A stretch of DNA of 64,000 bases from Dyella sp. A6 (GTDB lineage Bacteria; Pseudomonadota; Gammaproteobacteria; Xanthomonadales; Rhodanobacteraceae): NCBI RefSeq assembly GCF_036320485.1, contig NZ_CP132911.1, forward strand, positions 310,001 through 374,000. The letters are read 5' to 3'. The translations under genes were made by a program, and so were the position numbers. The stretch's first letter is position 1. Every line of letters starts with the position of its first letter. Positions 27,901 to 43,783 of the stretch are shown piece by piece. Under the pieces are notes generated by a model. That model did not search any database and was not told the origin of the DNA. It was given only the letters and a program-made list of their open reading frames with translations.

Positions 27901-28054
27901 CGGTGACGCTGACCTGCGGGTAGTCGAACTGCGGCAGCACCTCGACCGGGGTGTCGACGAAGGCGATCACCGCATACGTCAGCACCGCGCCGAGGATCAG
28001 CACCCACAGCAGCGGGCGGCGCAGCAGGCGCGGCAATGGAATCTCTGCGGGCAT
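24995..28054 (-). CDS. RND efflux permease of the BlaI/M56 cluster
   Basis: This 1019-residue RND pump is the last gene of the cluster blaI, M56, adaptor, pump. The N-terminus RRPLLWVLILGAVLTYAVIAF is the first membrane helix. The TM4 segment GLLADDAIIVLESIYHCWE retains the paired Asp of proton-driven drug pumps, whereas metal pumps of the CzcA type usually carry a different signature. Its first loop (GLRSVHSTMGSGTVEIDVRF) places it in a branch often annotated loosely as acriflavin or CzcA-like, so the substrate is open. The start follows the stop of the adaptor gene by two bases. No outer-membrane channel gene is in this operon; one could be shared with the divergent cluster. Confidence 0.85.
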   Translation of the reverse strand: MPAEIPLPRLLRRPLLWVLILGAVLTYAVIAFVDTPVEVLPQFDYPQVSVTAHLPGTTATELEHLVVNPLESQILALTGLRSVHSTMGSGTVEIDVRFGKDSNAQADLQAINGAIDRARGELPTQVHPLAEIMGNAINEVADYAAEIPAGIAAARVQRAVQANIVPALRALPGVQFVYTFGAGNEALWIQPRLGAMRRYGIGIDTIVQAVKAQVLLAPGGYLSLGHNDVLIEARNLPTRIARLRQVPVATPQGPVPLTALARIVRAGVPIHNAVSLDGHPSVALTVFKQPHASTLAVTRAVQAALEASQPQLPAGVHWVRIYDQGYIVGMVGRDLGRNLLIGAALAVLLLFWVLGAGRGIVVLALAIPLSLALGIAALHLMGHDLNLMTLGALSVAVGLLADDAIIVLESIYHCWERGDAHWQGILNGVRSIAIPDVTGTLTNVAIYVPLLFVGGLVGLFFIPFSLAMILALLASLLVSLCFIPLGLGFIGARPSAGSRSGQHLLEWLQRANQKLFHWVARAPRLSLGITFAVLLVSLVGLVLVPIDFLPLPNEGTLLESFTLAPGASLLESRIAVQNITTRLLADPAVAHVDARIGSGASTTYTEPAWAGEIQVTLKPGVNVNALDAIGQRIQRESQLPGVQLSVDTPTIERVGESLSGLPQPFVIRVFGSRIPELRRIAGEITARLKRIPALADVFDNDGYPVTQLQIEPRSAALALHRLTPAALYAQLDPLIDGQVISRVPQGNVPLDLYVRLADAPHRSVADLSALPIRTAGGWTPLDQLARLQLVQTPNQIRHIAGARALDILATPTGPLGSTDAAARRALAGLRLPAGYRIGFGGLAAELEQAALGLLLAGAAAFAIMVGILLLQFDGLLIPGILLLEIPLALTGGTVALVISGVGLNAMGMVGFLTLVGIGLRHSIVLLDRVRHNEAAGMPVDDAVHEAIRIRFRPIVLTALTAMLGMLPTALGLGQGAAPEQGLAVVILGGLAWSAVRSTNLIPALYLHWRHRQLARQQSG

Positions 28055-28056
28055 GT

Positions 28057-29142
28057 TCAGTCTGGCGGCTGGTAGGACTGGGCGATGTCACGGTGGTATT
28101 CCAGGAAGGCGTTCCTGCTCACCACCTGCTGCCCCGGGCGCAGGCCGGAGACGATCCAGGTGTGCCAGCCCTGCGCCGGTCCGGGTATCACCTGCCGCGG
28201 CGTGTTGCCGCTGGACGTGTGCAGCACCACCCACCAGCGACCGCGATCCAGCACCAGTGCCGAGGTCGGTATCGCCACGCCCTGCGCCGGCGGGCCGTCC
28301 ACGCTCACCGTGCCCGACTGGCCGTCGATCCACGATGCGGGCGGGGTGGCCGCCAGCGGCAGCAGGCCCACCGTGCGGCCGCCGTCCATCGCCAGTGCCG
28401 CCGCGACCGAGACGACCTTGACCGGCACGGCAGCGCTGCCGTCGGCCGGCTGGAAGCGGCCGCGCATGCCCGGGTGCAGCCGGGTGGCGTCGGCGCCGTA
28501 GTAGGTGGCATCAACCCACAGCCGGTTCGCCGGCAGCAGCACCAGCACGGTCTCGCCGGTCGTCACCTGCTCGCCGTCGCCGGCATGTACCGCCAGTACC
28601 GTTCCTGCCACTGGCGCACGCAGGCCCTGCATGTCGCGCGCCTCGGCCAGCCGGGTCCTGGCGGTTGCCTGCGCCGCCTGCGCCGAGGCCAGCGCACTGC
28701 GTGCCGCGTCGACGTCCTGCCGGGTCGCCAGCCGTTGCGCGAACTGGCGGCGGGCGATCGCCAGCGCCTGTCGTGCCGTCGCTGCGTTCGTGATGGCGCT
28801 GTGCAGCGCCGCTTCGCGGCCGGTCATGAAGGCGCGCAGACGGGAGCCGCCGAGCTGCGCCAGTACCTCGCCACGGACGACCGTGCTGCCGGGCACCACA
28901 TGCAGGTCGCGCAGCGCGCCGGGCACCAGTGCGCGCACCGGCACGGTGGCAACCGGCTCCACCTGGGCATAGGCCGTGTAGACCGTACTGCGCTGCTGCA
29001 GGCGGGCCACCGCGTAATCGCCGGATGACGGCGTGCGCGTGGCGGCGTGTACGTCGACGATGCCTGCCAGGCAGGCGAGGGCGGCCAGCGCGGCAAGGCG
29101 TCGCGGCCAGTTGCTTGCGGTGCTCAGAGCAGACATGTCCAT
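28057..29142 (-). CDS. RND efflux adaptor (HlyD-like) of the BlaI/M56 cluster
   Basis: This 361-residue periplasmic adaptor has a signal peptide (WPRRLAALAALACLAGIVDVHA). The first lipoyl half (PGALRDLHVVPGSTVVRGEV), a coiled coil with many Ala/Gln/Arg residues and the second half (LRAPVAGTVLAVHAGDGEQV) follow. A barrel and a membrane-proximal region complete it. The start overlaps the last codons of the M56 gene by 19 bases, so translation is probably coupled. Two Met codons (29142 and 29136) are equally possible. Confidence 0.82.
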   Translation of the reverse strand: MDMSALSTASNWPRRLAALAALACLAGIVDVHAATRTPSSGDYAVARLQQRSTVYTAYAQVEPVATVPVRALVPGALRDLHVVPGSTVVRGEVLAQLGGSRLRAFMTGREAALHSAITNAATARQALAIARRQFAQRLATRQDVDAARSALASAQAAQATARTRLAEARDMQGLRAPVAGTVLAVHAGDGEQVTTGETVLVLLPANRLWVDATYYGADATRLHPGMRGRFQPADGSAAVPVKVVSVAAALAMDGGRTVGLLPLAATPPASWIDGQSGTVSVDGPPAQGVAIPTSALVLDRGRWWVVLHTSSGNTPRQVIPGPAQGWHTWIVSGLRPGQQVVSRNAFLEYHRDIAQSYQPPD

Positions 29143-30032
29143 GCCAGCATGGGGTGAAGGATCGATTCGCCGTACAGCGCGCCCAGCAATACGGCCGTCA
29201 GCAGCGTGCACGCGAGCATCAGCGGCAGCCAAGCGCGATGCGTTTCCGGCGGTGCGGGTGCGACGTTCGCGCTCCGGTTCGCCAGCAGCCGCACGATGCG
29301 GCGCTCCAGCGCCTGGGGATTGCCGCCGAGCGCGGCATCGACCAGCAGGCGTGGCCGGCTCGTTGCCGTGCCATGCCGGTCCTGCGACGCATACTTCAGC
29401 GTGACCACCACCGCGGCGGCCAGGTCGGCCCCGGACACGCCGTGCTGGCGGGCTTCGTCGTCGCGTGCCTGTTCGAGCATTTCCAGCCAGTGGTCGAAGC
29501 GGTCGCGTGCGCCTGGCCACGGCCATTGCAGGTCGGCCGCGAGCTGGCCCAGCCAGATACGCAGAGGGTCGCGATGACGCACATGGGCCTGTTCGTGCTC
29601 CCAGGCCGCGCGCACCTGGCGGTCTTCCAGCGAGGGCACCAGGAACGGCGAGAACACGATCCGCGGGCGCAGCAGGCCGGCGGTGCAGATGGGCTGCCCG
29701 GCCGGTTCGCGCAGCAGTGCCCAGCCTGCACGGAACAGCGCACGCGACGCGACCAAGGCGAACGGAAGGCAGCTGGCCAGCAGCAGCCACGGGTCGAGGC
29801 GGTCATGCACCGGGTCGGGTTCGCGCAGCGCCCACCCGCCCAGCCAGGCCGCGATGATCCAGGTCGGCGCCACCGGCAGCCACAGATGCAGCCAGGCATG
29901 TCGTTCGGCGACGCCGGCATCGCCATCGCCATCGCGCCGCCCGCGAAAGCGGATCGCCGCCAGCGGCTGCACGGTCAGGCCGCCCAGCAGCAGCAACAGG
30001 ATGCCGAGCAGGGTTTCACGGCCCACGGTCAA
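29124..30032 (-). CDS. BlaR1-like M56-family membrane metallopeptidase
   Basis: This membrane zinc peptidase of about 302 residues has hydrophobic segments near residues 8-25, 48-68, 82-97 and 270-290. A cytosolic-side HEQAH zinc motif lies in WEHEQAHVRHRDP at about residue 145. In BlaR1/MecR1 this domain leads to cleavage of the BlaI/MecI repressor once an extracellular beta-lactam-binding domain is acylated. Here the protein stops just after the last helix, so the sensor domain is missing. The gene overlaps blaI; the start is either TTG at 30032 or GTG at 30026. It is probably the antirepressor of the adjacent BlaI protein, with another means of sensing. That role is inferred from gene order. 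Confidence 0.8.
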   Translation of the reverse strand: MTVGRETLLGILLLLLGGLTVQPLAAIRFRGRRDGDGDAGVAERHAWLHLWLPVAPTWIIAAWLGGWALREPDPVHDRLDPWLLLASCLPFALVASRALFRAGWALLREPAGQPICTAGLLRPRIVFSPFLVPSLEDRQVRAAWEHEQAHVRHRDPLRIWLGQLAADLQWPWPGARDRFDHWLEMLEQARDDEARQHGVSGADLAAAVVVTLKYASQDRHGTATSRPRLLVDAALGGNPQALERRIVRLLANRSANVAPAPPETHRAWLPLMLACTLLTAVLLGALYGESILHPMLAWTCLL

Positions 30033-30411
30033 GTGCCTTTCTGTCGCGGATCGCCTGCTCGAACTGTTCGAGCAGGTCCGGATCGATCTCGCCGACCGCG
30101 TCGACCAGCGCAGCGACCGCGGCCTGCGGTTCCGGGCCGAGGAAGCGTCCCATCAGTTGCCGGGCCCGCACGCGTTCCACTTCGGCGCGCTCGACCGTCG
30201 GTCGGTACACGAAGGCACTGTTGTCCCGGCGCCGCTCGACCAGGCGCTTTTCGCGCAAGCGATCCACCACCTTGGCGGTGGTGGTGTAGACATAGCCGGC
30301 GGGCACCCCGACGCGTTCGTGCAGGTCCCGCACCGATGCCGTTCCCAGCGCCCAGAGCGAACTGAGCACGGCGTATTCCAGATCATCGGCGGGCAGTGAA
30401 TAACGGCTCAT
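30016..30411 (-). CDS. BlaI/MecI/CopY-family transcriptional repressor
   Basis: This 131-residue winged-helix repressor is the first gene of the efflux operon. The Penicillinase_R fold is evident: LEYAVLSSLWALGTASVRDL, then a recognition helix around GYVYTTTAKVVDRLREKRLV and the wing RRRDNSAFVYRPTV, followed by a dimerisation helix. In this family, proteolysis by the M56 partner or ligand or metal loss relieves repression. A perfect palindrome at 30421-30438, ten bases before the start codon, is the likely operator, giving autoregulation of blaI, M56, adaptor and pump. Confidence 0.87.
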   Translation of the reverse strand: MSRYSLPADDLEYAVLSSLWALGTASVRDLHERVGVPAGYVYTTTAKVVDRLREKRLVERRRDNSAFVYRPTVERAEVERVRARQLMGRFLGPEPQAAVAALVDAVGEIDPDLLEQFEQAIRDRKALDRGP

Positions 30412-30420: not shown

Positions 30421-30438
30421 TTACGACGCACGTCGTAA
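30421..30438. promoter_or_regulatory. Probable BlaI operator
   Basis: Perfect inverted repeat TTACGACG-CA-CGTCGTAA with 8-bp arms, placed 10 bases upstream of the blaI start codon. Size and two-fold symmetry fit BlaI/CopY-type operators, which are short palindromes overlapping their own promoters. Confidence 0.7.
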
Positions 30439-30501: not shown

Positions 30502-30525
30502 GATTCTTACCAATCGGTAAGAATC
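30502..30525. promoter_or_regulatory. 24-bp dyad upstream of the PepSY/two-component cluster
   Basis: Perfect inverted repeat with 10-bp arms GATTCTTACC / GGTAAGAATC around AATC, 65 bases before the PepSY start. Read as TTCTTAC-N6-GTAAGAA it closely matches the dyad at 40095-40116 before the TonB receptor. It is likely an operator for a regulator common to both, perhaps the OmpR-type protein encoded downstream. Confidence 0.6.
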
Positions 30526-30589
30526 TCCCAATCCGTCGGCAAACACGCGCATGTCAACCTGACTGCACATCACAACGGAGTGTCGACTC

Positions 30590-31153
30590 ATGATCCATGC
30601 CGCATCCCGCCGAACGAACGCCTTCGTCCCGACAATGGCCTGCGCCGTGCTGCTGTTTGCCGGCGCTGGTCTCGGCACCGCGCACGCGGATGCCAGCGAG
30701 GCCGCTGAAATCGCCGCCGTGCACAGCGCCGGTATCGCCCCCATGGACGCGGTGTCGCGTGCCGAGAAGCACAGCGGCGGTCGTGCCTTCGGCATGGGGC
30801 TGGAAGTCGCGCGTCGCGGTACCTGGTACGAAGTGCAACTCGACGTGCACGGCAAGCCGATGCTCGCGCGGATCGATCCGCAAAGCGGGTCCTGGCTCGG
30901 CATTGCACCCGCGCACGGTGAAGACGCCCAGGGCATGCTCAGCCTGAAAGGCCGCAAGCTGTCGCTGAACCAGGCCATCGCCGCGGCCGAGCACGCCGGT
31001 CACGGACGCGCGCTGGAAGCGGGCCCGTATGGCCATGGCAAGGCGGCGCACTACGACGTCGATGTGGTGAGCCAGAGCAATCATGTCGCGCATTTCAGCG
31101 TCGATCCGGATACCGGCCGGGTGAGCACCGCGCCTGCCAGCGAGGTCGATTGA
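30590..31153 (+). CDS. Exported PepSY-domain protein
   Basis: This 187-residue protein has a signal peptide (FVPTMACAVLLFAGAGLGTAHA) and two PepSY-like repeats: about residues 50-105 (DAVSRAEKHSGGRAFGMGLE then WYEVQLDVHGKPMLARIDPQ) and 120-185 (SLNQAIAAAEHAGHGRALEA then HYDVDVVSQSNHVAHFSVDP). PepSY proteins with this layout often accompany OmpR/kinase pairs and are thought to act in the periplasm on the sensor or on proteases. CGGAG lies 9 bases before the ATG. The response-regulator gene follows after 76 bases, so it is probably the first gene of the cluster. Confidence 0.82.
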   Translation: MIHAASRRTNAFVPTMACAVLLFAGAGLGTAHADASEAAEIAAVHSAGIAPMDAVSRAEKHSGGRAFGMGLEVARRGTWYEVQLDVHGKPMLARIDPQSGSWLGIAPAHGEDAQGMLSLKGRKLSLNQAIAAAEHAGHGRALEAGPYGHGKAAHYDVDVVSQSNHVAHFSVDPDTGRVSTAPASEVD

Positions 31154-31229
31154 CCGATACGGATGGGCGTATACGAACACGCTTAGCCGGTACGATCGTT
31201 CCAGCCTCCCATTCACGCCGCATGTCCCC

Positions 31230-31919
31230 ATGAAGATCCTCCTGGTCGAAGACGATGCCGAAACCCTTGCCTATATCGCCAGGGGTCTGGGCGAGCTTGG
31301 CCACGTCGTCGACCAGGCTACGGATGGCCGGGAGGGTTTGTTCCATGCCAGCGAAGGGCACTACGACGTGCTGATCGTCGATCGCATGCTGCCCAAGCTG
31401 GACGGCCTGAGTCTGCTGCGCGCCCTGCGTGCGGCACAGGTGCATACGCCGGTGCTGATGCTGACCGCGCTGGGCGAGGTGGATGCGCGCGTCGAAGGTT
31501 TCGAGGCAGGCGCCGACGACTACCTGGCCAAGCCGTTCGCGTTCGCCGAACTGGCGGCGCGGGTCGGCGCGCTCGGCCGGCGGCCACCACTGGCGGAGAC
31601 GCTCACCGCCACTTTGCGCGTGGCTGACCTGGAGATGGACCTGCTGAAGCGCGAGGTGCGCCGCGGCGGACAGCCGATCGACCTGCAGCCGCGCGAGTTC
31701 CGCCTGCTCGAATACCTGATGCGCCATGCTGGCGAGGTAGTGACCCGGACCATGCTGCTGGAGCAGGTGTGGGAATACCATTTCGACCCGCAGACCAGCG
31801 TGGTGGAAACACACATCAGCCGCCTGCGCAGCAAAGTCGACCGCGGGTTCGAGAGTGGCGGCCTGCTGTGCACCGTGCGCGGCGCGGGCTACATGCTGCG
31901 CCTGGAAGCCGAACGCTAG
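31230..31919 (+). CDS. OmpR-family response regulator
   Basis: This 229-residue winged-helix response regulator has a receiver domain at residues 1-115 (MKILLVEDDAETLAYIARGL) with phosphoacceptor Asp51 (DVLIVDRMLP), a conserved Thr in LMLTAL and a Lys in DYLAKPF. The C-terminal DNA-binding domain contains LQPREFRLLEYLMRHAGEVV and the wing VRGAGYMLRL. Its stop abuts the start of the kinase gene, so the two are translated together. It probably controls this efflux cluster and, by the shared dyad, the TonB receptor gene downstream. Confidence 0.92.
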   Translation: MKILLVEDDAETLAYIARGLGELGHVVDQATDGREGLFHASEGHYDVLIVDRMLPKLDGLSLLRALRAAQVHTPVLMLTALGEVDARVEGFEAGADDYLAKPFAFAELAARVGALGRRPPLAETLTATLRVADLEMDLLKREVRRGGQPIDLQPREFRLLEYLMRHAGEVVTRTMLLEQVWEYHFDPQTSVVETHISRLRSKVDRGFESGGLLCTVRGAGYMLRLEAER

Positions 31920-33305
31920 ATGGCCGCACCGAACGCCAATGCCAGCTTCATCGTACGTCTGGTCCGCAGTTCCGCGTTCCGGCTGGCTGCGCTGCAGGCC
32001 AGCCTGTTCGCGCTGGTCGCGCTGGCGCTGTTCACCATCACCTGGTGGTCGGTCCGCGGCTATGTCGAGTCGCAGGTCCGCCACGCGATCAAGGACGAGT
32101 CCGCCGAAATCCTGGCGACTCCGGGCAGCGGGCTGGCCGCCGCCGTCAACGAGGCTGTGGCGCAGATGCCGCAGGGGCCGTTCTTCTATGGCCTGTTCAG
32201 CGCGCACGGGCAGCATCTGGCTGGCGATCTCGATCACGCACCGAGGGTCCAGGGCTGGAGCACCATGGTGCAGCATGAATCCCTGCATGGCGACCGCGAC
32301 CGGCATCGGCGCGTGCTGGTGCAGACTCTCCGGCTGGACGATGGCCGGCAACTCGTCGTCGGGCGCGACCGGCACAGCGCCGACGAGCTGGACGAACTGC
32401 TGCAGGGCTCGTTCCTGTGGGCCGGCATTGCCGCCGTGCTGCTGGCCCTGCTGGGGGGCGTGATCACCGCGCGCAACTACCTGGGCCGGGTCGAAGCGGT
32501 GGCCGCCGCCGCTGCCCGCATCGCCGGTGGCGAGCTGGAAACGCGCGTGCCACTGGGCGAGCGCGGCGACGAGTTCGACCGCCTCGCGCATTCGCTCAAC
32601 GCGATGCTGGAACGCATCCAGGCACTGATGGAAGGCATGCGCCAGGTGTCCAACGACATCGCACACGACCTGCGCACGCCGCTGGCCCACCTGCGCCAGC
32701 GCCTGGAAGCGGCGACCCGCGACGCCGACAGCATCGACGCGTTCCGTGCCGCCAGCGAACGTGCGCTGGCCGATGTCGACGGCGTGCTGGCCACGTTCGC
32801 CGCGCTGCTGCGCATCGCGCAGATCGAAAGTCGCCAGCGTCGCGCCGGTTTTGCCATACTCGACCTGTCCGCGCTGCTGACCAGTCTCGCTGGCGACTTC
32901 GCGCCCGTGCTCGAAGACCAGGGACGTTCGTTGCACACGCGCATCGAACCGGGCCTGCAGGTGCACGGTGACCGTGCCCTGCTTACCCAGATGGTCGCCA
33001 ACCTGATCGAGAACGCCCTTCGGCACACGCCGGCCGGCACGCCGGTGGAGCTGGTGCTGGAACGTTCCGGCGACAGCGTCCGCATGGTGGTTGCCGATGC
33101 CGGCCCCGGCATTCCCGCAGCGGCGCGTGCGCACGTGCTCGGGCGTTTCGTGCGCCTGGACGCGGCGCGCAGCACGCCGGGCAGCGGCCTCGGGCTGGCG
33201 TTGGTGGCCGCGGTCGCCGATCTTCACGGCATTGCGCTGGAGCTGGGCGATGCCCGGCCCGGTCTGCGTGTGCAACTGGATTTCCCCACCAAGGAAACGA
33301 TGTGA
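31920..33305 (+). CDS. Sensor histidine kinase (HAMP, HisKA)
   Basis: This 461-residue inner-membrane kinase is the partner of the preceding regulator. Two membrane helices (about 20-45 and 160-185) enclose a short periplasmic sensor of roughly 110 residues. A HAMP domain, a HisKA domain with NDIAHDLRTPLAHLRQ (His249) and an HATPase domain with N-box MVANLIENALRHTP and G-box GSGLGLALVAAV follow. The ATG directly follows the stop of the regulator gene. The channel gene begins at a GTG that overlaps this gene's stop codon. The signal is unknown. Confidence 0.92.
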   Translation: MAAPNANASFIVRLVRSSAFRLAALQASLFALVALALFTITWWSVRGYVESQVRHAIKDESAEILATPGSGLAAAVNEAVAQMPQGPFFYGLFSAHGQHLAGDLDHAPRVQGWSTMVQHESLHGDRDRHRRVLVQTLRLDDGRQLVVGRDRHSADELDELLQGSFLWAGIAAVLLALLGGVITARNYLGRVEAVAAAAARIAGGELETRVPLGERGDEFDRLAHSLNAMLERIQALMEGMRQVSNDIAHDLRTPLAHLRQRLEAATRDADSIDAFRAASERALADVDGVLATFAALLRIAQIESRQRRAGFAILDLSALLTSLAGDFAPVLEDQGRSLHTRIEPGLQVHGDRALLTQMVANLIENALRHTPAGTPVELVLERSGDSVRMVVADAGPGIPAAARAHVLGRFVRLDAARSTPGSGLGLALVAAVADLHGIALELGDARPGLRVQLDFPTKETM

Positions 33306-34642
33306 TTCCGAACTCCCTACGCCCTGTGCGTGTCGCCATCGTCGGAGCCTTGCTGCTGCTGGCGGGCTGCGTCACCTACCAGTCACATCCGCTGCCGACG
33401 GCGCCGCACTGGGCGGCGACGCCGACCGATGCGCACGGCAAGCCGCTCGCCACGCTGGACATGCGCCAGGCCAGTGCGCTGGCGCTGCGCGCCGACCCCG
33501 ATTACCAGGCCAGCCTGATCGACGCGCGCATCAGCACGTTGCAGTTGCACGCGGCCGGGCTGCTGCCCGACCCGCAGCTGAGTGCCAGCGTGGATCATCC
33601 GACCACCCCCGGCTACAGCCATGGCTGGAGTCTCGGCCTGAGCGAGGACGTGTCGTGGCTGCTTACCCGCGGCGCGACCGTGGACGCGGCGCGGGCCCGC
33701 CGCGCTACCACCGAACTGCAGCTGGCCTGGCAGGGCTGGAGCCTGGCGCAGGCCAGTGCGGCGGGTTTCGTCGACCTGTGGACCGCGCAGAAACGTTGCG
33801 CCCTGCTGCAGCGCCAGCTGGATGCCGCGACACGATTCAATGCGGCGTACCAGCGTGCGCTGGCGCGTCACGATGTCACCCTCGACACCGCATCGGCGAG
33901 CTTGATCGACCTGACCGACACGCAGAGCCAGCTGGCCGCGGCCGAGCAGGCCAGGGAGGCTGCGCAGGCCAACCTCAACCATCTGCTGGGGGTGGCGCCC
34001 GGCGCGCGTTACGGACTGGTCGCGCCGATGCCGTTGACGCTGCCTTCGGCATCCCAGCTGACGGCGGCGCTGCAGGCCTTGCCGAAGACACGTCCCGACC
34101 TGCTGGCGCTGGCCGCCGCCGCGCATGCCACCGATGCCGATTTCCGCGCGGCGGTGATGGCCCAGTTCCCGGGCCTGAGCGTCGGCGTCAACCGTGCCGG
34201 CGATACCAGCCGGGTCGATACCACCGGATTCAGCATCAACCTCAACCTTCCGGTGTTCGGCCGGGCCCAGGCCAATGCACGCATCGCCAGGGCCGCGCGT
34301 GACCGTGCAGTGGCCGAATATCAGGCGCGGCTCGACCAGGCCGATGTCGAGGCGCGCACCCTGTACGCGCAACTGCGCCAGGTCGCGCACCAGCGCAAGG
34401 TGCTGCAGCAAAACCTGCCCCAGCTCCGCATGTTCGCCCGCCGCGCCGACCGCGCCTTCCACGCGGGCAACTACTCGGGCGCCGCATGGCTTGCGGTACA
34501 GCAGAGCGTGATCACGCACGAGCTGCAGATGCTGGACCTCACCGCCACCCTGACCAAGGGCGAGGTCGCCCTGGCGGCCCTGCTCGGGCACGTTCCCCCC
34601 GGTGCTTCCCCCATTCCCGCCCACGGAACCCTGTCACGATGA
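33302..34642 (+). CDS. Outer-membrane efflux lipoprotein (TolC family) of the two-component RND cluster
   Basis: This 446-residue channel has a short signal peptide with an LLAGC lipobox (IVGALLLLAGCVTYQSHP) and two OEP repeats with long Ala/Gln/Leu-rich helices. It starts at a GTG overlapping the kinase stop (GTGA) and ends overlapping the adaptor start (ATGA). It is the only channel gene in the two divergent RND clusters and might serve both. That is an inference. Confidence 0.85.
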   Translation: MIPNSLRPVRVAIVGALLLLAGCVTYQSHPLPTAPHWAATPTDAHGKPLATLDMRQASALALRADPDYQASLIDARISTLQLHAAGLLPDPQLSASVDHPTTPGYSHGWSLGLSEDVSWLLTRGATVDAARARRATTELQLAWQGWSLAQASAAGFVDLWTAQKRCALLQRQLDAATRFNAAYQRALARHDVTLDTASASLIDLTDTQSQLAAAEQAREAAQANLNHLLGVAPGARYGLVAPMPLTLPSASQLTAALQALPKTRPDLLALAAAAHATDADFRAAVMAQFPGLSVGVNRAGDTSRVDTTGFSINLNLPVFGRAQANARIARAARDRAVAEYQARLDQADVEARTLYAQLRQVAHQRKVLQQNLPQLRMFARRADRAFHAGNYSGAAWLAVQQSVITHELQMLDLTATLTKGEVALAALLGHVPPGASPIPAHGTLSR

Positions 34643-35685
34643 AATGCGCGCTACCCGTGCCGGCCCTGCTGGCCACCCTGATGCTGTTGCTGCCCCTTTC
34701 CGGTCGTGCCGACGACGCGCCCAGCGCGCTGGTGTCGGTCACCCGCATCGTGCAGCAGCCGTTGCACGACCGCCTGACGGTCTACGGCAGGGTCGCTAGC
34801 GACCCTGCCCACGTGCATTCGCTGACCAGCCTGCACAGCGGCATCGTCGAACGGACAATGGTGACGCCCGGACAGCAGGTGACCAAGGGGCAGCCCCTGC
34901 TCGCGCTGGCCAGTTCGCCGCAGGCGCAGATGGCCTATGCCCAGGCGCGCAGCAAGCTGACCAGTGCGCAGGCCCAGCTTAAGCAGTCCGAGGCGCTGTA
35001 CCGCGAAAGCCTGGTCACGCATGCGGACCTCGCCGCCGCCAGGCAGAACCTCAACGATGCCAAGGCCGGTCTCGCCGCGATCGAGGCACAAGGCACGGGG
35101 CATGCGACCCAGCTGCTGCGCGCATCCGAGGCCGGCACGATCAGCCGCGTCGACGTGTCGCCCGGTGCGCTGGTACAGCCGGGCCAGCCGCTGCTGACGC
35201 TGAGCGCGCAGACCCATCTGTGGATCCGGCTCGGCGTCGAACCGGAAGAAGCCGCCAAGGTGCATACGGGGGCGCCGGTCGATCTTCGCGCTGTGTTCGG
35301 CAGCAGCGTCGTGCACGCCAAGGTCGCGCAGGTGAACAACGTGATCGATCCGGCCACGCACCTGGTCGACGCGGTGGTCGAGCTGGACGGCAAGGACACC
35401 GCCGGACTGGTGCCCGGCAGCTGGATGCGCGGCGTGATCAGGCTGGGCACCCAGGCCGGACTGGCGGTGCCGCGTAGCGCCGTGCTCAGCGAGCACGGGC
35501 AGAGCTACGTGTTCATCATCCAGCATGGGCATGCGACCCGCGTGAACGTGCACACCGGCCTCGAGTCCGCCGGCCTGGTGGCGATTGCCGGTGCCGTGCA
35601 CGAAGGTGACATGGTCGTCACCAGCGGCAATTACGAACTGACCGATGGCATGGCCGTGCGCCTGGCCAAGGAGCCGATGCAATGA
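34639..35685 (+). CDS. RND efflux adaptor of the two-component cluster
   Basis: This 348-residue periplasmic adaptor has a signal peptide (PVPALLATLMLLLPLSGRA). A first lipoyl half (HSGIVERTMVTPGQQVTKGQ), a short coiled coil (AQMAYAQARSKLTSAQAQLK), a second half (ASEAGTISRVDVSPGALVQP), a barrel and a membrane-proximal domain follow. The short hairpin resembles CusB/CzcB-type adaptors more than AcrA. ATGA overlaps link it to both neighbours, so channel, adaptor and pump are translationally coupled. Confidence 0.85.
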   Translation: MKCALPVPALLATLMLLLPLSGRADDAPSALVSVTRIVQQPLHDRLTVYGRVASDPAHVHSLTSLHSGIVERTMVTPGQQVTKGQPLLALASSPQAQMAYAQARSKLTSAQAQLKQSEALYRESLVTHADLAAARQNLNDAKAGLAAIEAQGTGHATQLLRASEAGTISRVDVSPGALVQPGQPLLTLSAQTHLWIRLGVEPEEAAKVHTGAPVDLRAVFGSSVVHAKVAQVNNVIDPATHLVDAVVELDGKDTAGLVPGSWMRGVIRLGTQAGLAVPRSAVLSEHGQSYVFIIQHGHATRVNVHTGLESAGLVAIAGAVHEGDMVVTSGNYELTDGMAVRLAKEPMQ

Positions 35686-38600
35686 CGGGCGGCGGTCTGG
35701 CTGCCTGGCTGCAGCGTCATCGAAATGCCGTACTGTTCCTGATGGGGGTGCTGGCGATCGGCGGCATGATCGCGGCATTGACCATGCCGGTGTCGCTGTT
35801 CCCGGCGACCCAGTTTCCGCGGGTGCGGGTGAGCATCGATGCCGGCGACCGCCCGGCGAATCAGATGGCGGTGGAGGTCACGCGGCCGGTCGAGGAGGCG
35901 CTGCGCGGTGTCCGCAACCTGCAGACGATCGAGTCCACCTCCAGCCGCGGCAGCACCGACATCGACCTGCGCTTCAGCTGGGGCACGGACATCATCCGCG
36001 CCGCGCTGGAAGTGCAGTCTGCGCTCGACCAGGTGTTGTCGCAGCTGCCGCCCGGTACGCGCTTCCACGTACGGCCGATGGACCCGACCAAGTTTCCGGT
36101 GGTGGCCTACAGTCTGACGTCGCCGACCGAGAGTCCGGTGGCGCTGCGCAATATCGCGCAGTACCAGCTGCTGCCGCTGATCTCCAGCGTGCAGGGCGTG
36201 CGTGCGGTGCAGGTGCAGGGCGGCGAGCAGCCCGAGTTCCGCGTCACCGTGGACCCCGCTCGGCTGGCTGCGCTGCACCTGAGCCTGAAGAACGTGCAGG
36301 ACGCACTGGCGGCGTCCAACGTGATCCAGTCGGTGGGACGTCTCAACCGCGACGACCGCCTGTACCTGCTGATGTCGGACACGCGCTACAGCGGTGTCGA
36401 CGCGATCCGGCATGTGGTGCTTCGCACCGGTGCTGACGGCGTGGTCCAGCTGCAGGACGTGGCGACGGTGGATGTCTCCACCGTGCCGCGCTGGGAAACC
36501 GAAACGGCCGATGGCAAGCCGGCGGTGCTGATCAACGTGTTCCAGCAGCTGGGCGGCAACACGGTGGCGATCAGCCGAGACATCGCCAGCACCCTGGCCG
36601 CGTTCCGAAGCAAGCTGCCGAAGGACGTGACCATCCATCAGTGGTACGACCAGAGCGGCCTGATCGTCAATTCGGCGGGCTCGGTGCGCGACGCGATCAT
36701 CCTCGGCGTGATCTTCGCCACGCTGGTGCTGTTCGCCTTCCTGCGCAACTGGAAGCTGACCCTGATCGCGGTGCTGGTGGTGCCGGCGGTGCTGGCGACC
36801 ACCAGCCTGATGCTCCGCGCGTTCGGCATGAGCTTCAACATCATGACGCTCGGCGGCATGGCCGCGGCGGTGGGCCTGATCATCGACGACGTGATCGTGA
36901 TGCTGGAACACCTGGTGCGCCGCGTGGCCGGCCGTGGACATGGCACGCAGACCCTGCTTGCCGCGGCGAGGGAATTCACCCAGCCGCTGGCGGGTTCGTC
37001 CACCGCGACGGTGATCATCTTCGTGCCGCTGGCCTTCCTCGGCGGGGTGACCGGCGCGTTCTTCAAGTCGCTTTCGCTGACCATGGGTGCCAGCCTGGTC
37101 ATCAGCTTCTTCTTCGCCTGGCTGGCGCTGCCGCTGATCGCCGACCACCTGCTCAGCGAGAAGGACGCCATGATCGAGCATGGCGGACGCATCACCCAGC
37201 GGGTCCAGGCCGGCTACCGGCGCCTGATGCAGCGCTTGCTGCAGCGGCCAGCGCTGCTGCTGATCGGCCTGGTGCCACTGCTGCTGATCGGCGCGCTCGG
37301 TTTCCTCAAGGTGCCGACCGGCTTCATGCCGGAGATGCAGGAAGGCGGCTTCGTGCTGGACTACCGCACCACGCCGGGTACCTCACTGGTCGAAAGCAAC
37401 CGGCTGATCGCGCAGGTGGAACACATCATGGGTACCACGCCCGGTGTCGACACCTGGTCGCGGCGTACCGGCGCGCAGCTCGGCGGCGGCCTGACCGAGG
37501 CCAACGAAGGCGACTTCTTCGTACGCCTGAAGAGTTCGCGCGGCCAGGCTGCGCTGATGGACAAGATCGTTTCGCGCATCCAGCGCGACGTGCCCGGTTT
37601 CGAGATACTGGATACGCCGCAGCCGATGCAGGACCTGATCGGCGACCTGACCGGTTCGCCGCGTCCAGTGGTCATCCGCCTGTTCGGCGACGACTGGCCG
37701 GAGCTGGTCAAGCTGGCGCCGAAGGTCGCCAAGGCGATCGGCAAGGTGCGCGGGCTGGCCGAGATCCAGAACGGACTGAATATCGCCGGCGACTCCATCG
37801 ACATCCGGGTCGACCGGGTCAAGGCGTCGCTGGAAGGGATGACGCCGTCTGAGGTAACCGCCCAGCTCGACACCTATCTGGCGGGCAATGTCGCCACCCG
37901 CGTGCTGCACGGGCAGATCGTCTACGGCGTGCGGGTCTGGGTGGCACCGCAGGAGCGCGATTCGCTGCGGCGGCTGCGCGCGCTGGAGCTCACGGCGCCG
38001 GATGGCCATCTGGTGCCACTGGGCCGCATTGCCAAACTCCAGCTGGTGAACGGCCAGGCGCAGATCACACGCTACGACCTCAAACCGATGGTCGCCGTAT
38101 CGGCGCGCATCCAGGGGCGCAGCTACGGCACCACCCTGGCCGACGTGCGGCATGTGCTGGCCGAGCCCGGATTGCTGCCCAAGGGCGTGTACTACACGCT
38201 GGGCGGGTTGTACCAGCAACAGCAGATCGCCTTCCGCGGGCTGGCCATGGTGTTCGCCGCGGCGGCCGCGCTGGTCTTCCTGACCTTGCTGTTCATCTAC
38301 AACCGGTTCGGCGTCGCCATTTCGATCATGACCGGCTCGCTGCTCGCGGCCAGTGCGGTGTTCTTTGGCCTGTGGATCTGCGGGCAGACGCTCAACATCA
38401 CCGCGCTGATGGGCCTGACCATGATCCTGGGCATCGTTACCGAGGTCGGCGTGTTCTATTTCTCCGAGCTCGACCTGTTGCGCGAGGAGGGCATGCCCTT
38501 TGGCGAGGCGCTGATACAGGCCGGTGAAAACCGCCTGCGCCCGATCGCCATGACGACCCTTGCCGCGATGCTGGCACTGGCACCGCTGGCGCTGGGCATC

Positions 38601-38735
38601 GGCCAGGGGTCGGCCATGCAGCAGCCGCTGGCCGTGGCGATCATCGCCGGTCTGGTGGTGCAGATGCCGCTGGTCCTGATCGGCGTGCCGGTGATCTACG
38701 GCGTGTTCCAGCGTCGTCGTCAGGCTTCGGCCTAG
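35682..38735 (+). CDS. RND efflux permease of the two-component cluster
   Basis: This 1017-residue RND pump is the end of the PepSY, regulator, kinase, channel, adaptor, pump cluster. The first helix AVLFLMGVLAIGGMIAALTM, the TM4 segment GLIIDDVIVMLEHLVRR with the paired Asp, and the C-terminal helices (TALMGLTMILGIVTEVGVFY) are in place. The EH rather than EN after the paired Asp and the VSLFPATQFPRVRVSIDAG loop mark a subfamily separate from AcrB. The substrate is unclear; neighbouring iron-type uptake genes and the CusB-like adaptor leave metal or chelate export possible. Confidence 0.87.
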   Translation: MTGGGLAAWLQRHRNAVLFLMGVLAIGGMIAALTMPVSLFPATQFPRVRVSIDAGDRPANQMAVEVTRPVEEALRGVRNLQTIESTSSRGSTDIDLRFSWGTDIIRAALEVQSALDQVLSQLPPGTRFHVRPMDPTKFPVVAYSLTSPTESPVALRNIAQYQLLPLISSVQGVRAVQVQGGEQPEFRVTVDPARLAALHLSLKNVQDALAASNVIQSVGRLNRDDRLYLLMSDTRYSGVDAIRHVVLRTGADGVVQLQDVATVDVSTVPRWETETADGKPAVLINVFQQLGGNTVAISRDIASTLAAFRSKLPKDVTIHQWYDQSGLIVNSAGSVRDAIILGVIFATLVLFAFLRNWKLTLIAVLVVPAVLATTSLMLRAFGMSFNIMTLGGMAAAVGLIIDDVIVMLEHLVRRVAGRGHGTQTLLAAAREFTQPLAGSSTATVIIFVPLAFLGGVTGAFFKSLSLTMGASLVISFFFAWLALPLIADHLLSEKDAMIEHGGRITQRVQAGYRRLMQRLLQRPALLLIGLVPLLLIGALGFLKVPTGFMPEMQEGGFVLDYRTTPGTSLVESNRLIAQVEHIMGTTPGVDTWSRRTGAQLGGGLTEANEGDFFVRLKSSRGQAALMDKIVSRIQRDVPGFEILDTPQPMQDLIGDLTGSPRPVVIRLFGDDWPELVKLAPKVAKAIGKVRGLAEIQNGLNIAGDSIDIRVDRVKASLEGMTPSEVTAQLDTYLAGNVATRVLHGQIVYGVRVWVAPQERDSLRRLRALELTAPDGHLVPLGRIAKLQLVNGQAQITRYDLKPMVAVSARIQGRSYGTTLADVRHVLAEPGLLPKGVYYTLGGLYQQQQIAFRGLAMVFAAAAALVFLTLLFIYNRFGVAISIMTGSLLAASAVFFGLWICGQTLNITALMGLTMILGIVTEVGVFYFSELDLLREEGMPFGEALIQAGENRLRPIAMTTLAAMLALAPLALGIGQGSAMQQPLAVAIIAGLVVQMPLVLIGVPVIYGVFQRRRQASA

Positions 38736-38863
38736 CCCGGCCCGAGCCGACGGATGCCTGTCCTTCCATCGATCCATGCGTTCCGGCGCGGCCCCGCAAG
38801 GGCGTCGCGTCCGGAGCGTCCTGCCCGATCCGCTTATCGATTCCCGCATCAAGGAAACTGCCC

Positions 38864-39940
38864 ATGAACAAGCCCCTTCTCGCCGTCGCCGCCCTGGTCG
38901 CGGCCATGGCCGCGGCCGTCGCCACGCCGACGCTTGCCGCAACGTCCTCGCTGCATCAGGTCGCCACGATTCCGGTTCCCGGGAACGCTCTGAAAAGTTT
39001 CGACATCAGCGCGTACTCGCCGGGTCAGGACCTGTATGGCTTTTCTGACCGCTCCAATCACGCCGTCGATCTGATCGACACGAAGCATGACCGCTTTGTC
39101 GGCCGCATCACCGGCTTCCAGCATGGCGGTCCGAACGGGCTGGTCGCGGTGGGCACGCAGCAGTTCTGGGCCGGTGATGGCGGCAGCAAGCTGCAGGTGC
39201 TTGACCTGCGCGCACGGAAAATCGTCGCCACGATCCATACCGGCGGCACCGAGCGCGTCGACGAACTGGCCTACGATCCGCGCGACCATGTCGTCATCGC
39301 CGCCAACAACGAGGACAATCCGCCCTTCGTCAGCTTCGTATCGACCGCGCCGGGACACCGCATCCTCGACAAGCTGTCGTTCCCGCAGGCCACCGGCGGC
39401 CTCGAACAGCCGCTGTGGAACCCGAACGACGGCAAGGTCTACCTCTCGGTGCCGGTTCTCGACCACCACAAGGCCGATGGTGGCATTGCGGTGATCGACC
39501 CGGTGAAGCACCGCCTGCTGCGCATGATCCACGTGCACGAATGCATGCCCGCCGGGCTGGCCCTGGGCCCGCACGATCACTTGCTGGTCGGCTGCAGCGA
39601 CGATGCGGTGGACGCCGGCTTTGCACCGCGCTCGCTCATCGTCGACCTGGCCACCGACAAGGTCACCCGCACGATCATGCAGGTCGGCGGTTCCGACGAG
39701 GTGTGGTACGACCGTGGCAGCGATCATTTCTACCTGGCCGCCGTCGCCAACACGCATGGTCCGGTGCTGGGCGTGATTGATGCGCGCACGGGCCGTTGGC
39801 TGGAAAACCTTCCCACCGGCAAGAGTGCCCATTCGGTTGCGGCCGATCCGCTGAACGGCAAGGTGTTCGTGCCGGTGGCGGCCAACCCGTCGGTGCCGGA
39901 TTGTGCCAATGGCTGTGTCGAGGTGTTCGCCAGCCACTGA
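38864..39940 (+). CDS. Exported YncE-like beta-propeller protein
   Basis: This 358-residue secreted propeller has a signal peptide (LLAVAALVAAMAAAVATPTLAA). Six to seven YVTN/YncE-type blades follow with repeated V-x-D-x-x-x-x-K or R-I-V-x-T-I elements (for example VDLIDTKHDRFVGRITG, LQVLDLRARKIVATIHTG and GVIDARTGRWLENLPTG). AAGGAA lies 8 bases upstream of the ATG. In E. coli a YncE propeller is encoded next to the TonB receptor YncD, and the same pairing is seen here, where a TonB receptor gene follows after a terminator. The ligand is unknown. Confidence 0.75.
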   Translation: MNKPLLAVAALVAAMAAAVATPTLAATSSLHQVATIPVPGNALKSFDISAYSPGQDLYGFSDRSNHAVDLIDTKHDRFVGRITGFQHGGPNGLVAVGTQQFWAGDGGSKLQVLDLRARKIVATIHTGGTERVDELAYDPRDHVVIAANNEDNPPFVSFVSTAPGHRILDKLSFPQATGGLEQPLWNPNDGKVYLSVPVLDHHKADGGIAVIDPVKHRLLRMIHVHECMPAGLALGPHDHLLVGCSDDAVDAGFAPRSLIVDLATDKVTRTIMQVGGSDEVWYDRGSDHFYLAAVANTHGPVLGVIDARTGRWLENLPTGKSAHSVAADPLNGKVFVPVAANPSVPDCANGCVEVFASH

Positions 39941-40008
39941 CCGTTCCCGTGACGTGTATGTGCGGGCTGCCTGCCGGGCGGTACCACACGTATGGACGTC
40001 TGTACCAG

Positions 40009-40044
40009 GGGCCTGCCGGGCGACCGGACAGGCCCTTTCTTTTC
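40009..40044 (+). terminator. Terminator after the YncE-like gene
   Basis: Stem GGGCCTG / CAGGCCC (40009-40015 and 40029-40035) with a 13-base loop, followed by TTTCTTTT. It separates the propeller gene from the TonB receptor gene. Confidence 0.75.
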
Positions 40045-40094
40045 ATGGCAACCGCATTCGACAAGGCCCGTGGGCAGCTTGCTGCCGGCCGTCC

Positions 40095-40116
40095 TTCCTT
40101 ACCATTCCGTAAGGAA
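40095..40116. promoter_or_regulatory. Dyad upstream of the TonB receptor
   Basis: TTCCTTAC-CATTCC-GTAAGGAA, perfect 8-bp arms around six bases, about 90 bases before the receptor start. The centre (TTAC-CAwTCs-GTAA) matches the dyad at 30502-30525, suggesting one regulator for both promoters. Confidence 0.6.
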
Positions 40117-40204: not shown

Positions 40205-42517
40205 ATGCATACGTTTCGTCACCTCCAGCTGTACCAAGCCATGCTCGTTGCCGGAATGCTCTCCTTCGCACTGCCCAGTGCCCATGCCGCATCCGCCAGC
40301 GCACCGCAGCCAGCAGCGGCCGGCGTGTCCTCACCCCGGGCTGCCGCCGGCAAGAAGAAGGTGAAGAACCTTACTGCCGTGCAGGTCATCGCGCAGGAGC
40401 TAACCCTGACCCGCATTCCGATGAACTCGGCCTTCAGCGCATCGGTGATCGGTCCCTCGGCGATCCGCTTCTCCTCGCCGATGCTCAGCGTGCAGAGCCT
40501 GCTGGAGCGTACGCCGTCGATCAACGTGCGCACGCCCGCGGCAAACAGCGTGCGCACCAACATCACCTTCCGCGCCTTCAGCAGCGGCCAGTTCTCCGAA
40601 ACCTTCGACGGCGTCTCGATCAACGACCCGTTCAACGGCGGCACCACCAACTCGGCGTCGACCCGCAACAACATCCCGCTGACCCTGAACGACATCGACA
40701 GCGTCAACATCTATCGCGGCATCAACAATCCCGCCGTGACCTCGTACAACTCGCTGGGCGGCACCATCGCATTCCAGCCGCGCGATCCGAGTTCCAAGCC
40801 CAGTGCCTCGGTCTCCATGGGCGGCGGCAGTTTCGGCACCTGGTTCTACGGCCTCACCGGCAACACCGGCGAGATCGGCGGGGTGCGCAACCTGGTCAGC
40901 ATCACGCACAATTCCAGTAACGGTTGGCAGGACAACTCCGGCAACCGCAATACCAACGTCTACTACGCCGGCGAGCTGCCCTACGACAACGCCAACGGCA
41001 CGCTGTACGCCTACGTGATCTACAACGAGAACCGCGGCTTCACTCCGCATACGGTGCCGCTGCCGCTGATCCAGCAATACGGCTACAGCTATGGCTGGCC
41101 GTTGAACTGGACTAACAGCTATAACAAGGATCACGGCGGCACCTATATCTTGGGCGACCGCATGTGGATCAACGACGAGCTGTCGTTCAACATCCGTGCG
41201 TATGCGCGTCGAGTGAATTATCAACGAATTTCATACGGTAATCCGGACTACGCGCAGAGCGCCACCCAACCGTATCTTTTGCCGAATCAGAGCACTGATC
41301 CCAGTACCGCATACCACACTTATCTTTACACCACTCAGCAGCTCGGGGTGATGCCGCACTTTACCCTGAGCCTTCCTGACAATGAGGTGAAGTTCGGCGC
41401 CGACTACTCACACACCAAGCTTCATTCGGCGGAGTACTGGTACGGTTCCCGGTCAATGCCATTGACTACTGGGCTCAACGACGCCTGGGACGAGCACGAC
41501 AGCCGTGACCTTGGCTCTTTCTTTGTGCAGGACGAAATCAGCCTGCTCGACGACACCCTGCACATCACGCCGGGCGTGAAGTACATGTTCGAGCGCACTT
41601 CGGACTTCGATAACGTGGGCTTCTATTACCCGATCAGCGGTTCGGTGTCGGACAAGGAGCACTACACCTCGCCCACCATCGGCGTGAACTGGCGGCCGAT
41701 GGAGCACCTGAGCCTGTACGCGGCCTGGGGCAAGACGGCCAAGTTCCCGGGTATCGCGGCGTACTACAACAATGTCGGGCTTTCCAATGCGGCCGGCCAG
41801 ACGGTGGTCGTGCCGCTGCACGTCTCACCGGAATTCGTCCGTGACCTCGAGGCTGGTGTGCGTTACGAGCAGCACGGCTTCCAGGGCGCGCTGAACCTGT
41901 ACCGCGAGAATTTTGCCAATACCTTCATCCAGTCGACCAACCAAGTCACGGGCATTTCCACCACGTCCAATGGCGGCAGTTCACGTTACGAAGGTGCAGA
42001 GCTCGACCTGCAGGACAGCCTGAAGACCCGCTTCGGCGGCTTCAGCATCTACGGCAACCTGGCCGAGAACAAGGCCTATTTCACTTCCGACTTCACCGTA
42101 GCCAACAGCTCCGGCGTGGCCGCGACCGCGGGGCAGGATGTCCACTCCGGACAACCGCTTGCCGGCGTGCCCAAGCATCTGGCGAACCTCGGCATCGGCT
42201 GGAAGTGGCAGGGCTGGCGCGTCAATGTGAGCGAGCACTACTCCGGTTCGCAGTACGTGAATGAATACAACGCCGGTGTGCCTTCGGCTGAAACCATCCC
42301 CAGCTATGCGGTGACCAACCTGACCGTGCGCGACACCGTGCATATCGGCGACGGCATGCTGAAGGACGTGAAGCTCGCGCTGTATGTCGACAACGTGCTG
42401 GACCGCCACTACTACACCTTCGGCTACGGCGACTTCATGTCCGACAACACGCCGTTCGTCCGTGCCATCTACGAAGAGCCCAGGGCCTATTTCGCCTCGG
42501 CGACGGTCGATTTCTGA
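40205..42517 (+). CDS. TonB-dependent outer-membrane receptor (YncD/ferric-siderophore-like)
   Basis: This 770-residue TonB-dependent receptor has a signal peptide (MLVAGMLSFALPSAHAA). The plug domain starts near residue 60 (LLERTPSINVRTP, then NITFRAFSSGQFSETFDGVSINDPF). A 22-strand barrel follows, with SLGGTIAFQPRDP at its beginning and FVRAIYEEPRAYFASATVDF ending in the C-terminal Phe needed for assembly. A possible TonB box is LTAVQVIAQ. The start is the ATG after GGGA. A stretch around 41210-41340 has noticeably more A/T than the rest of the gene and may reflect local exchange in an extracellular loop. The dyad upstream and the YncE-like neighbour link it to the PepSY/two-component cluster. 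The substrate is unknown; iron chelates are most likely. Confidence 0.85.
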   Translation: MHTFRHLQLYQAMLVAGMLSFALPSAHAASASAPQPAAAGVSSPRAAAGKKKVKNLTAVQVIAQELTLTRIPMNSAFSASVIGPSAIRFSSPMLSVQSLLERTPSINVRTPAANSVRTNITFRAFSSGQFSETFDGVSINDPFNGGTTNSASTRNNIPLTLNDIDSVNIYRGINNPAVTSYNSLGGTIAFQPRDPSSKPSASVSMGGGSFGTWFYGLTGNTGEIGGVRNLVSITHNSSNGWQDNSGNRNTNVYYAGELPYDNANGTLYAYVIYNENRGFTPHTVPLPLIQQYGYSYGWPLNWTNSYNKDHGGTYILGDRMWINDELSFNIRAYARRVNYQRISYGNPDYAQSATQPYLLPNQSTDPSTAYHTYLYTTQQLGVMPHFTLSLPDNEVKFGADYSHTKLHSAEYWYGSRSMPLTTGLNDAWDEHDSRDLGSFFVQDEISLLDDTLHITPGVKYMFERTSDFDNVGFYYPISGSVSDKEHYTSPTIGVNWRPMEHLSLYAAWGKTAKFPGIAAYYNNVGLSNAAGQTVVVPLHVSPEFVRDLEAGVRYEQHGFQGALNLYRENFANTFIQSTNQVTGISTTSNGGSSRYEGAELDLQDSLKTRFGGFSIYGNLAENKAYFTSDFTVANSSGVAATAGQDVHSGQPLAGVPKHLANLGIGWKWQGWRVNVSEHYSGSQYVNEYNAGVPSAETIPSYAVTNLTVRDTVHIGDGMLKDVKLALYVDNVLDRHYYTFGYGDFMSDNTPFVRAIYEEPRAYFASATVDF

Positions 42518-43472: not shown

Positions 43473-43726
43473 GCAATCAGATCCTTCAGCGCGTGGTTCT
43501 CCATCGCCAGCTCGGCATACATCCGCTTGAGCTTGGCGTGCTCCGCCTCGATGTCGCGCAGCCGCTGTATGTCGGACGCTTCCATCCCGCCGTACTTGGA
43601 CTTCCACACGTAGTACGTGGCGTCCGATATGCCCAACTCGCGGCACACATCTTTGACCTGCCGACCGCCTTCGACCTGCTTCAGCGTCGCGACGATCTGA
43701 CTTTCGGTGAACTTGCTCTTGCGCAT
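43460..43726 (-). CDS. IS3-family transposase OrfA
   Basis: This 88-residue DNA-binding half (HTH_Tnp_1 family) has RKSKFTESQIVATLKQVEGG, a helix-turn-helix with VKDVCRELGISDATYYVWK, and a C-terminal leucine-zipper-like helix (DIQRLRDIEAEHAKLKRMYA). The last codons (GCA AAA AAG TTG TAG) contain the frameshift site leading into OrfB. Confidence 0.92.
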   Translation of the reverse strand: MRKSKFTESQIVATLKQVEGGRQVKDVCRELGISDATYYVWKSKYGGMEASDIQRLRDIEAEHAKLKRMYAELAMENHALKDLIAKKL

Positions 43727-43783
43727 CTTCGGTCTCCTTGGGGCTAGTTTGCCCGGAGACCTCCAGTTATGCCTGGATCAAGA

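What the first reader, a model, noticed from the sequence alone, without database searches (positions are those of the whole stretch)
30502..40116. Matching TTAC-N6-GTAA dyads link a PepSY/two-component/RND cluster with a YncD-like TonB receptor
The dyad at 30502-30525 (TTCTTAC-CAATCG-GTAAGAA core) and the dyad at 40095-40116 (TTCCTTAC-CATTCC-GTAAGGAA) share arms and most of the six central bases. Each lies 65-90 bases before the start of the first gene it would control. Two such matches in two promoters 9.6 kb apart are unlikely by chance and suggest one regulon joining efflux, a periplasmic PepSY sensor, a propeller and outer-membrane uptake. The OmpR-type regulator encoded between them is the obvious candidate, although OmpR proteins more often bind direct repeats.
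Basis: partly seen in the sequence, partly recalled or inferred. Interest (0 to 1): 0.75.

Follow-up and report, generated by a model that had tools for sequence, protein, structure and literature searches.

The report
Metal-type regulator's operator beside TonB receptors
Two near-identical DNA palindromes in this bacterium look like the binding sites of one copper-sensor-type regulator that would jointly control an efflux pump operon and an outer-membrane uptake receptor, and many relatives of this regulator carry a similar palindrome beside uptake receptors.

Summary
Both dyads exist as described, and CTTAC-N6-GTAAG occurs only at these two places in the 3.72-Mb genome. The regulator between them (31230-31919) is nearest the heavy-metal (CusR/HprR/CopR) branch of the OmpR family, whose known members bind inverted repeats; E. 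coli's HprR/CusR box contains TTAC-N6-GTAA. A weight matrix built only from other genera ranks the two dyads first and second in the window (25.2, 18.2; next 6.4). Of 58 relatives of the regulator in the family, 28 have a site scoring at least 15 nearby, 18 of them among the 22 that neighbour a TonB receptor. CTTACCNATCGGTAAG is in 14 of 197 genomes, all among the 48 with the regulator. Receptor plus propeller beside this two-component system recurs (20 of 58). Weak points: only 4 of 24 other homologues of the window's receptor have an exact dyad upstream, the arms of dyad 2 also mark toxin-antitoxin-like operons, the "YncD-like" label fails, and signal, ligand and sign of control are open. 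Most likely a local regulon: a new variant of a known kind.

The parts
30502..30525 (.). dyad 1, predicted operator of the regulator at 31230-31919, before the PepSY/two-component/pump operon
   Evidence: perfect 10-bp arms; matrix score without its own genus 18.2, second in the window; exact TTAC-N6-GTAA at the same place in 7 of 9 orthologous PepSY loci and TTAC-N6-GTAG in the other 2
30590..31153 (+). PepSY-domain protein, 187 aa, N-terminus reads like a signal peptide (by eye)
   Evidence: Pfam PF03413, 27.5 bits over cut-off 24
31230..31919 (+). OmpR-family response regulator nearest the heavy-metal (CusR/HprR/CopR) subfamily
   Evidence: TIGR01387 best, 239.5 bits, below the curated cut-off of 279.2; next CusR model 228.7 and HprR model 215.9
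31920..33305 (+). sensor histidine kinase, nearest the heavy-metal type
   Evidence: TIGR01386 best, 177.9 bits, below cut-off 292.55; HAMP and HATPase_c
33302..34642 (+). outer-membrane efflux channel (OEP)
   Evidence: PF02321
34486..35685 (+). periplasmic adaptor of the RND pump; the ORF overlaps the channel gene by 157 bases, so the true start is probably later
   Evidence: TIGR01730, 166.2 bits over cut-off 94.9
35682..38735 (+). RND permease, substrate class unresolved
   Evidence: ACR_tran 693 bits; below the cut-offs of the multidrug and CusA/CzcA models
38864..39940 (+). beta-propeller protein, distant relative of YncE-type propellers
   Evidence: weak propeller matches, none over cut-off; about 24% identical to propellers of three other regulator loci
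40007..40045 (+). intrinsic-terminator-like hairpin with T-rich tail between propeller and dyad 2
   Evidence: -25.8 kcal/mol, z -3.94, 0 of 200 shuffles as stable; the simple terminator scan found none, I think because the stem has a bulge
40095..40116 (.). dyad 2, predicted operator of the same regulator, before the TonB receptor
   Evidence: perfect 8-bp arms; matrix score without its own genus 25.2, the best in the window
40205..42517 (+). TonB-dependent receptor, 770 aa, ligand unknown
   Evidence: PF00593 and PF07715 over cut-off; no NCBIfam model over cut-off; single weak PDB hit FemA, E 2e-8

Best explanation
The two dyads are operators of the heavy-metal-type response regulator encoded between them. 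The core seen in other genera is TTAC-CGATCG-GTAA; the outer bases vary (TTCC...GGAA-like in several loci). Model: the sensor kinase detects an envelope signal, probably a metal or metal complex; the phosphorylated regulator binds as a symmetric dimer; it autoregulates the operon PepSY - regulator - kinase - outer-membrane channel - adaptor - RND pump (probably reading on into the propeller) from dyad 1, and controls the TonB receptor from dyad 2. Shown by computation: the sites, their rarity, their co-occurrence with this regulator lineage, and the repeated neighbourhood of regulator, TonB receptor and propeller. Inferred: binding, activation rather than repression, the signal, the operon's extent and the receptor's ligand.
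For: Only 2 CTTAC-N6-GTAAG in the genome. A matrix from 13 sites of other genera puts the two dyads at ranks 1 and 2 in the window, 25.2 and 18.2 against 6.4 next. Leave-one-genus-out score of 15 or more within -4.5 to +6 kb in 28 of 58 regulator loci: 18 of 22 with a TonB receptor, 7 of 9 with PepSY and no receptor found, 3 of 27 others; background 0 of 11 loci (best 14.9) and 0 of 7 window tiles (best 8.5). CTTACCNATCGGTAAG in 14 of 197 genomes, all within the 48 with the regulator, none for the control; hypergeometric 5e-10, ignoring kinship. Same half-site and spacing in the E. coli HprR/CusR box. No BlaI homologue in the DNA fetched for the 9 orthologous PepSY loci. A receptor homologue in G081, a regulator genome, has a 20.4 site 158 bases upstream.
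Against: The nearest relative with the cluster (G165) has no dyad before its orthologous receptor; of 24 other receptor homologues, 4 have an exact dyad within 600 bases (3 of them score 15 or more), three of the 4 with AT-rich centres unlike the consensus. Arms like those of dyad 2 also stand beside PIN-domain genes in 3 genomes. G165's own dyad 1 scores only 3.7 without its genus although its core arms are exact. Of 27 regulator loci without PepSY or receptor, only 3 have a strong site. The threshold of 15 was set after seeing the scores, just above the best background. The presumed reading helix TS(VIL)(VI)ETH(IMV)SRLR is kept in 29 of 29 rows grouped as site-bearing but also in 17 of 34 others, so it discriminates poorly. 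No promoter consensus was found at either site.
Confidence: 0.8

Rival explanations
1. Dyad 1 is the regulator's autoregulatory operator, but dyad 2 is bound by a different factor or is an unused look-alike, so the receptor is not in the regulon.
For: Only 4 of 24 other homologues of the receptor have an exact dyad within 600 bases upstream. Arms-only TTCCTTAC-N6-GTAAGGAA (up to 1 mismatch) also stands beside PIN-domain genes in G154, G164 and G018. The six central bases of dyad 2 score only +1.3.
Against: Dyad 2 is still the best match in the window to a matrix from other genera (25.2); the three PIN-linked sites score 11.4 to 16.0, with centres of -7.9 to -11.6. Gene models around dyad 2 are a propeller and the receptor, with no PIN or antitoxin gene among the proteins tested. 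The same regulator lineage sits beside a TonB receptor with a site of 15 or more in 17 loci outside the window.
Confidence: 0.2
2. The divergent BlaI-type repressor (30016-30411) binds dyad 1.
For: It is the nearest regulator on the other strand, and BlaI-type proteins bind inverted repeats (recalled).
Against: No BlaI homologue was found in the DNA fetched for the 9 orthologous PepSY loci, all of which keep a dyad there; in some of them little upstream DNA was held (about 0.85 kb in L113). A different dyad, TTACGACG-CA-CGTCGTAA at 30421-30438, lies closer to the BlaI gene and is the better candidate for it.
Confidence: 0.05
3. Another OmpR-family regulator of this genome binds both dyads.
For: The genome has many paralogues: 15 matches to TIGR01387 of 85 bits or more, this one included, none over the cut-off.
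Against: This one is the best of them and the only one at E 1e-75 to itself in this genome, where 14 of 65 first-look candidates were scored; sites follow its relatives across genera.
Confidence: 0.05

Closest known systems
E. coli HprSR / CusSR (HprR/CusR box CATTACAAAATTGTAATG; cusCFBA, hiuH-msrPQ)
   Same: heavy-metal branch regulator, palindromic TTAC-N6-GTAA box (or TGAC-N6-GTCA between cusR and cusC, seen in L181) next to its own genes, very small local regulon, RND pump among the targets
   Different: no TonB receptor, PepSY protein or propeller named in that regulon in the passages I read; different central bases and outer arms
Pseudomonas CusR/CopR/CzcR palindrome and Cupriavidus AgrR box (ATKACANNNNTGTMAT)
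   Same: OmpR-family metal regulators binding inverted repeats, autoregulation, neighbouring metal genes (passages)
   Different: targets named in the passages are copper, zinc or silver resistance genes; sequence outside the TAC/GTA core differs
E. coli pqqU (yncD) - yncE pair
   Same: TonB receptor next to a propeller gene
   Different: receptor and propeller here align only in parts at about 22-26%; no exact TTAC-N6-GTAA there, and 2 one-mismatch matches against 2.1 expected

Membership tests
heavy-metal response regulator (TIGR01387) | score over the curated cut-off of 279.2 bits | tested here: not met
   239.5 bits, best of the models listed but below cut-off; so 'nearest to', not a formal member
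heavy-metal response regulator (TIGR01387) | receiver plus winged-helix domain, paired kinase with HAMP next to it | tested here: met
heavy-metal response regulator (works like) | inverted-repeat operator at its own promoter | tested here: met
   dyad before the operon in the 9 orthologous PepSY loci, exact in 7; sequence evidence only, no binding test
heavy-metal response regulator (works like) | metal-responsive induction | not testable with these tools
   needs an experiment
CusA/CzcA heavy-metal RND permease (TIGR00914) | score over cut-off 701.45 | tested here: not met
   442.3 bits
multidrug RND permease (NF033617) | score over cut-off 1250 | tested here: not met
   543 bits
YncD/PqqU receptor | full-length similarity to E. 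coli YncD | tested here: not met
   24% over about 218 columns of the plug region and 26% over a C-terminal piece; not among the 5 matches of YncD in this genome
TonB-dependent receptor | plug and beta-barrel domains over cut-off | tested here: met

The most novel reading that the evidence does not exclude
A lineage of metal-type two-component regulators in this bacterial family is dedicated to outer-membrane traffic: through one palindrome, TTAC-CGATCG-GTAA, it controls a TonB receptor plus a propeller protein, and in the window it has been rewired to couple an RND exporter with a different receptor, so that one sensor sets both export and re-uptake of the same (metal-binding) compound.
Probability: 0.3. 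Interest if true: 0.65.

Novelty: new variant of a known kind. Interest (0 to 1): 0.5.

Why it matters
It turns a two-site observation into a testable regulon with a consensus operator, and it links a class of sensors known for metal efflux with TonB-dependent uptake and YncE-type propellers. Knowing the signal of this two-component system would give a handle on the ligand of several receptors whose ligand is not known from the searches made here.

Tried and rejected
Looser motif TTAC-N6-GTAA genome-wide: 6 places against 11 for the backwards control, so not informative alone; the 4 other places have no or one base pair of further symmetry. PepSY/regulator loci of another type (L120-L129, regulator about 40-43% identical where found): no exact dyad; L120-L130 served as background. 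Loci of the wide scan (capped at 80): I compared the first 26 (L009-L034) with the window's genes; some have TTAC-N6-GTAA near the regulator or a following operon (L014, L022, L023), not pursued. L218/L223 (regulator 56-57%): receptor present, propeller in L218, no matching dyad seen. E. coli pqqU-yncE region: nothing beyond chance. The helix argument was weakened on recount: kept in 29 of 29 rows grouped as site-bearing but also in 17 of 34 others; that this stretch is the DNA-reading helix is recalled, not computed. Literature: 10 searches of the held library. I read passages only of PMC8249747, PMC7563307, PMC9302797, PMC11195947 and PMC7380067. In those listings and passages I noticed no description of this regulator type controlling a TonB receptor; the library lacks most subscription papers, so this is not a claim of absence from print. 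One of the 59 regulator matches (the G125 copy at 2307797) was not fetched, so counts are out of 58. One search scored at most 14 first-look candidates per genome in the rows shown. The matrix was trained on 14 sites picked by their exact TTAC-N6-GTAA core in the same loci; leave-one-genus-out lessens but does not remove that circularity. The regulator tree is a quick one with several long branches.

Full report
What is there. Dyad 1 (30502-30525) is GATTCTTACC-AATC-GGTAAGAATC and dyad 2 (40095-40116) is TTCCTTAC-CATTCC-GTAAGGAA. They end 64 and 88 bases before the start codons of the PepSY gene (30590) and the TonB receptor gene (40205). In the 3.717-Mb genome CTTAC-N6-GTAAG occurs at these two places only, with one place for its backwards control. 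The shorter TTAC-N6-GTAA is at chance level (6 against 11 for its control), so the strength of the observation lies in the longer arms and in what follows.

The genes. On the + strand follow a PepSY protein, an OmpR-family regulator, a sensor kinase, an outer-membrane channel, an adaptor, an RND permease and, after 128 bases, a propeller. The regulator is closest to the heavy-metal subfamily (239.5 bits, curated cut-off 279.2), then to CusR and HprR. The permease lies below the cut-offs of both the multidrug and the CusA/CzcA models, so its substrate class stays open. A hairpin of -25.8 kcal/mol followed by TTTCTTTT lies between propeller and dyad 2, which suggests that the receptor has its own promoter, although the consensus scans found no promoter or terminator there, nor a promoter at dyad 1. 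The receptor has plug and barrel domains but no named subfamily over cut-off; it is not E. coli YncD (RefSeq: pqqU) by the comparisons made.

The motif follows the regulator. I examined 58 of the 59 regulator matches (E 1e-75 or better) found in 48 of 197 genomes of the family. A matrix trained without the genus under test finds a site of 15 or more within -4.5 to +6 kb in 28 of 58 loci. By neighbourhood: 18 of 22 loci with a TonB receptor (window included), 7 of 9 with the PepSY operon and no receptor found, 3 of 27 others. In 11 background loci the best score was 14.9 and in 7 tiles of the window 8.5; the threshold was set after seeing these. In the window itself, a matrix without any site of its genus gives 25.2 for dyad 2 and 18.2 for dyad 1, next 6.4.

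Co-occurrence. The exact pattern CTTACCNATCGGTAAG is in 14 of 197 genomes and its control in none. All 14 are among the 48 regulator genomes (hypergeometric 5e-10; kinship is ignored, so this overstates). The 15 places are 10 at regulator operons, 1 before a receptor beside a short remnant of the regulator (G049), 3 before a cytochrome b561 gene (G129, G071, G139) and 1 unclear (G129 contig 37). The quick tree of the regulators puts the window in a group of 10 with 5 PepSY-linked and 5 receptor-linked members. The stretch that I take, from general knowledge of the fold, to be the DNA-reading helix fits TS(VIL)(VI)ETH(IMV)SRLR in 29 of 29 rows grouped as site-bearing (three of these, L119, L236 and L226, score under 15) but also in 17 of 34 others, so it is weak evidence.

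A recurring set. A large receptor stands beside the regulator in many loci; the two examples tested are of the TonB-Xanth-Caul type (TIGR01782, over cut-off). Within -9 to +11 kb of the regulator, a receptor of either type is found in 22 of 58 loci, a propeller in 24 of 58 and both in 20 of 58, the window included. The site lies in the divergent spacer, before a receptor-regulator-kinase operon, or between kinase and receptor. The window has the same set with a different receptor family and a distant propeller (about 24% identical to three others).

Against. Of 24 other homologues of the window's receptor (43-83% identical at the N-terminal piece), 4 have an exact TTAC-N6-GTAA within 600 bases upstream (G084, G119, G043, G081), with scores of 16.7, 17.9, 7.4 and 20.4; those of G084, G119 and G043 have AT-rich centres and lie 309-452 bases upstream, that of G081 has centre GGATAA at -158. 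All 4 are regulator genomes, but so are 19 of the 24. G165, with the closest cluster, has none. The arms TTCCTTAC/GTAAGGAA alone, with up to one mismatch, occur in 6 of 197 genomes: dyad 2, the G049 receptor, 3 places beside PIN-domain genes, and one not examined (G185). The centre of dyad 2 fits the operator family weakly (+1.3), those of the PIN places not at all (-7.9 to -11.6). So dyad 2 is probable, not certain.

Known relatives. E. coli hprR-hiuH carries CATTACAAAATTGTAATG, described as the CusR and HprR boxes (PMC9302797, figure legend passage); cusR-cusC carries TGAC-N6-GTCA. Pseudomonas CusR/CopR/CzcR and Cupriavidus AgrR are also described as binding inverted repeats (passages of PMC11195947 and PMC7380067). 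The window system works like these by operator geometry and gene layout; formal membership in TIGR01387 is not met by score.

Verdict. A local regulon with two operators, probably responding to a metal or envelope signal. The operator and its link to receptors are new in detail to me; the kind of system is known. Direction of control, signal and ligand are open. After the recount the helix argument is weaker and the receptor comparison is more finely told; neither moved my odds.

Noticed in passing
window 24995-30411 (- strand) and dyad 30421-30438: Divergent BlaI-type repressor, a gene with a weak M56 peptidase (BlaR1-like) match overlapping an adaptor-like ORF, and a second RND permease; TTACGACG-CA-CGTCGTAA beside the BlaI gene is its likely operator.
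   Followed up: partly
window 42618-43747 (- strand): Insertion element with two transposase frames (HTH_Tnp_1 and integrase core) directly downstream of the TonB receptor; it may bear on how the receptor came to lie here.
   Followed up: partly
L265 4828, L266 3467, L267 4975: In three genomes of one genus the exact core CTTACCGATCGGTAAG stands before a cytochrome b561 gene next to queF, a possible further target.
   Followed up: partly
L268 4735, L269 4787, L270 4881: TTCCTTAC-N6-GTAAGGAA-type palindromes (one with a mismatch) with AT-rich centres beside PIN-domain genes, one with a MazE-type antitoxin match; probably autoregulatory sites of toxin-antitoxin operons.
   Followed up: partly
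L245 / L263 (G049 contig 15): TonB receptor with a strong dyad beside a short remnant-like match to the regulator; a regulator copy of about 60% identity lies on another contig.
   Followed up: no
L169, L175, L229 upstream of the regulator: A paralogous regulator group in one genus has its own variant, TTACGAAATCGTA, about 620 bases upstream of the regulator.
   Followed up: no
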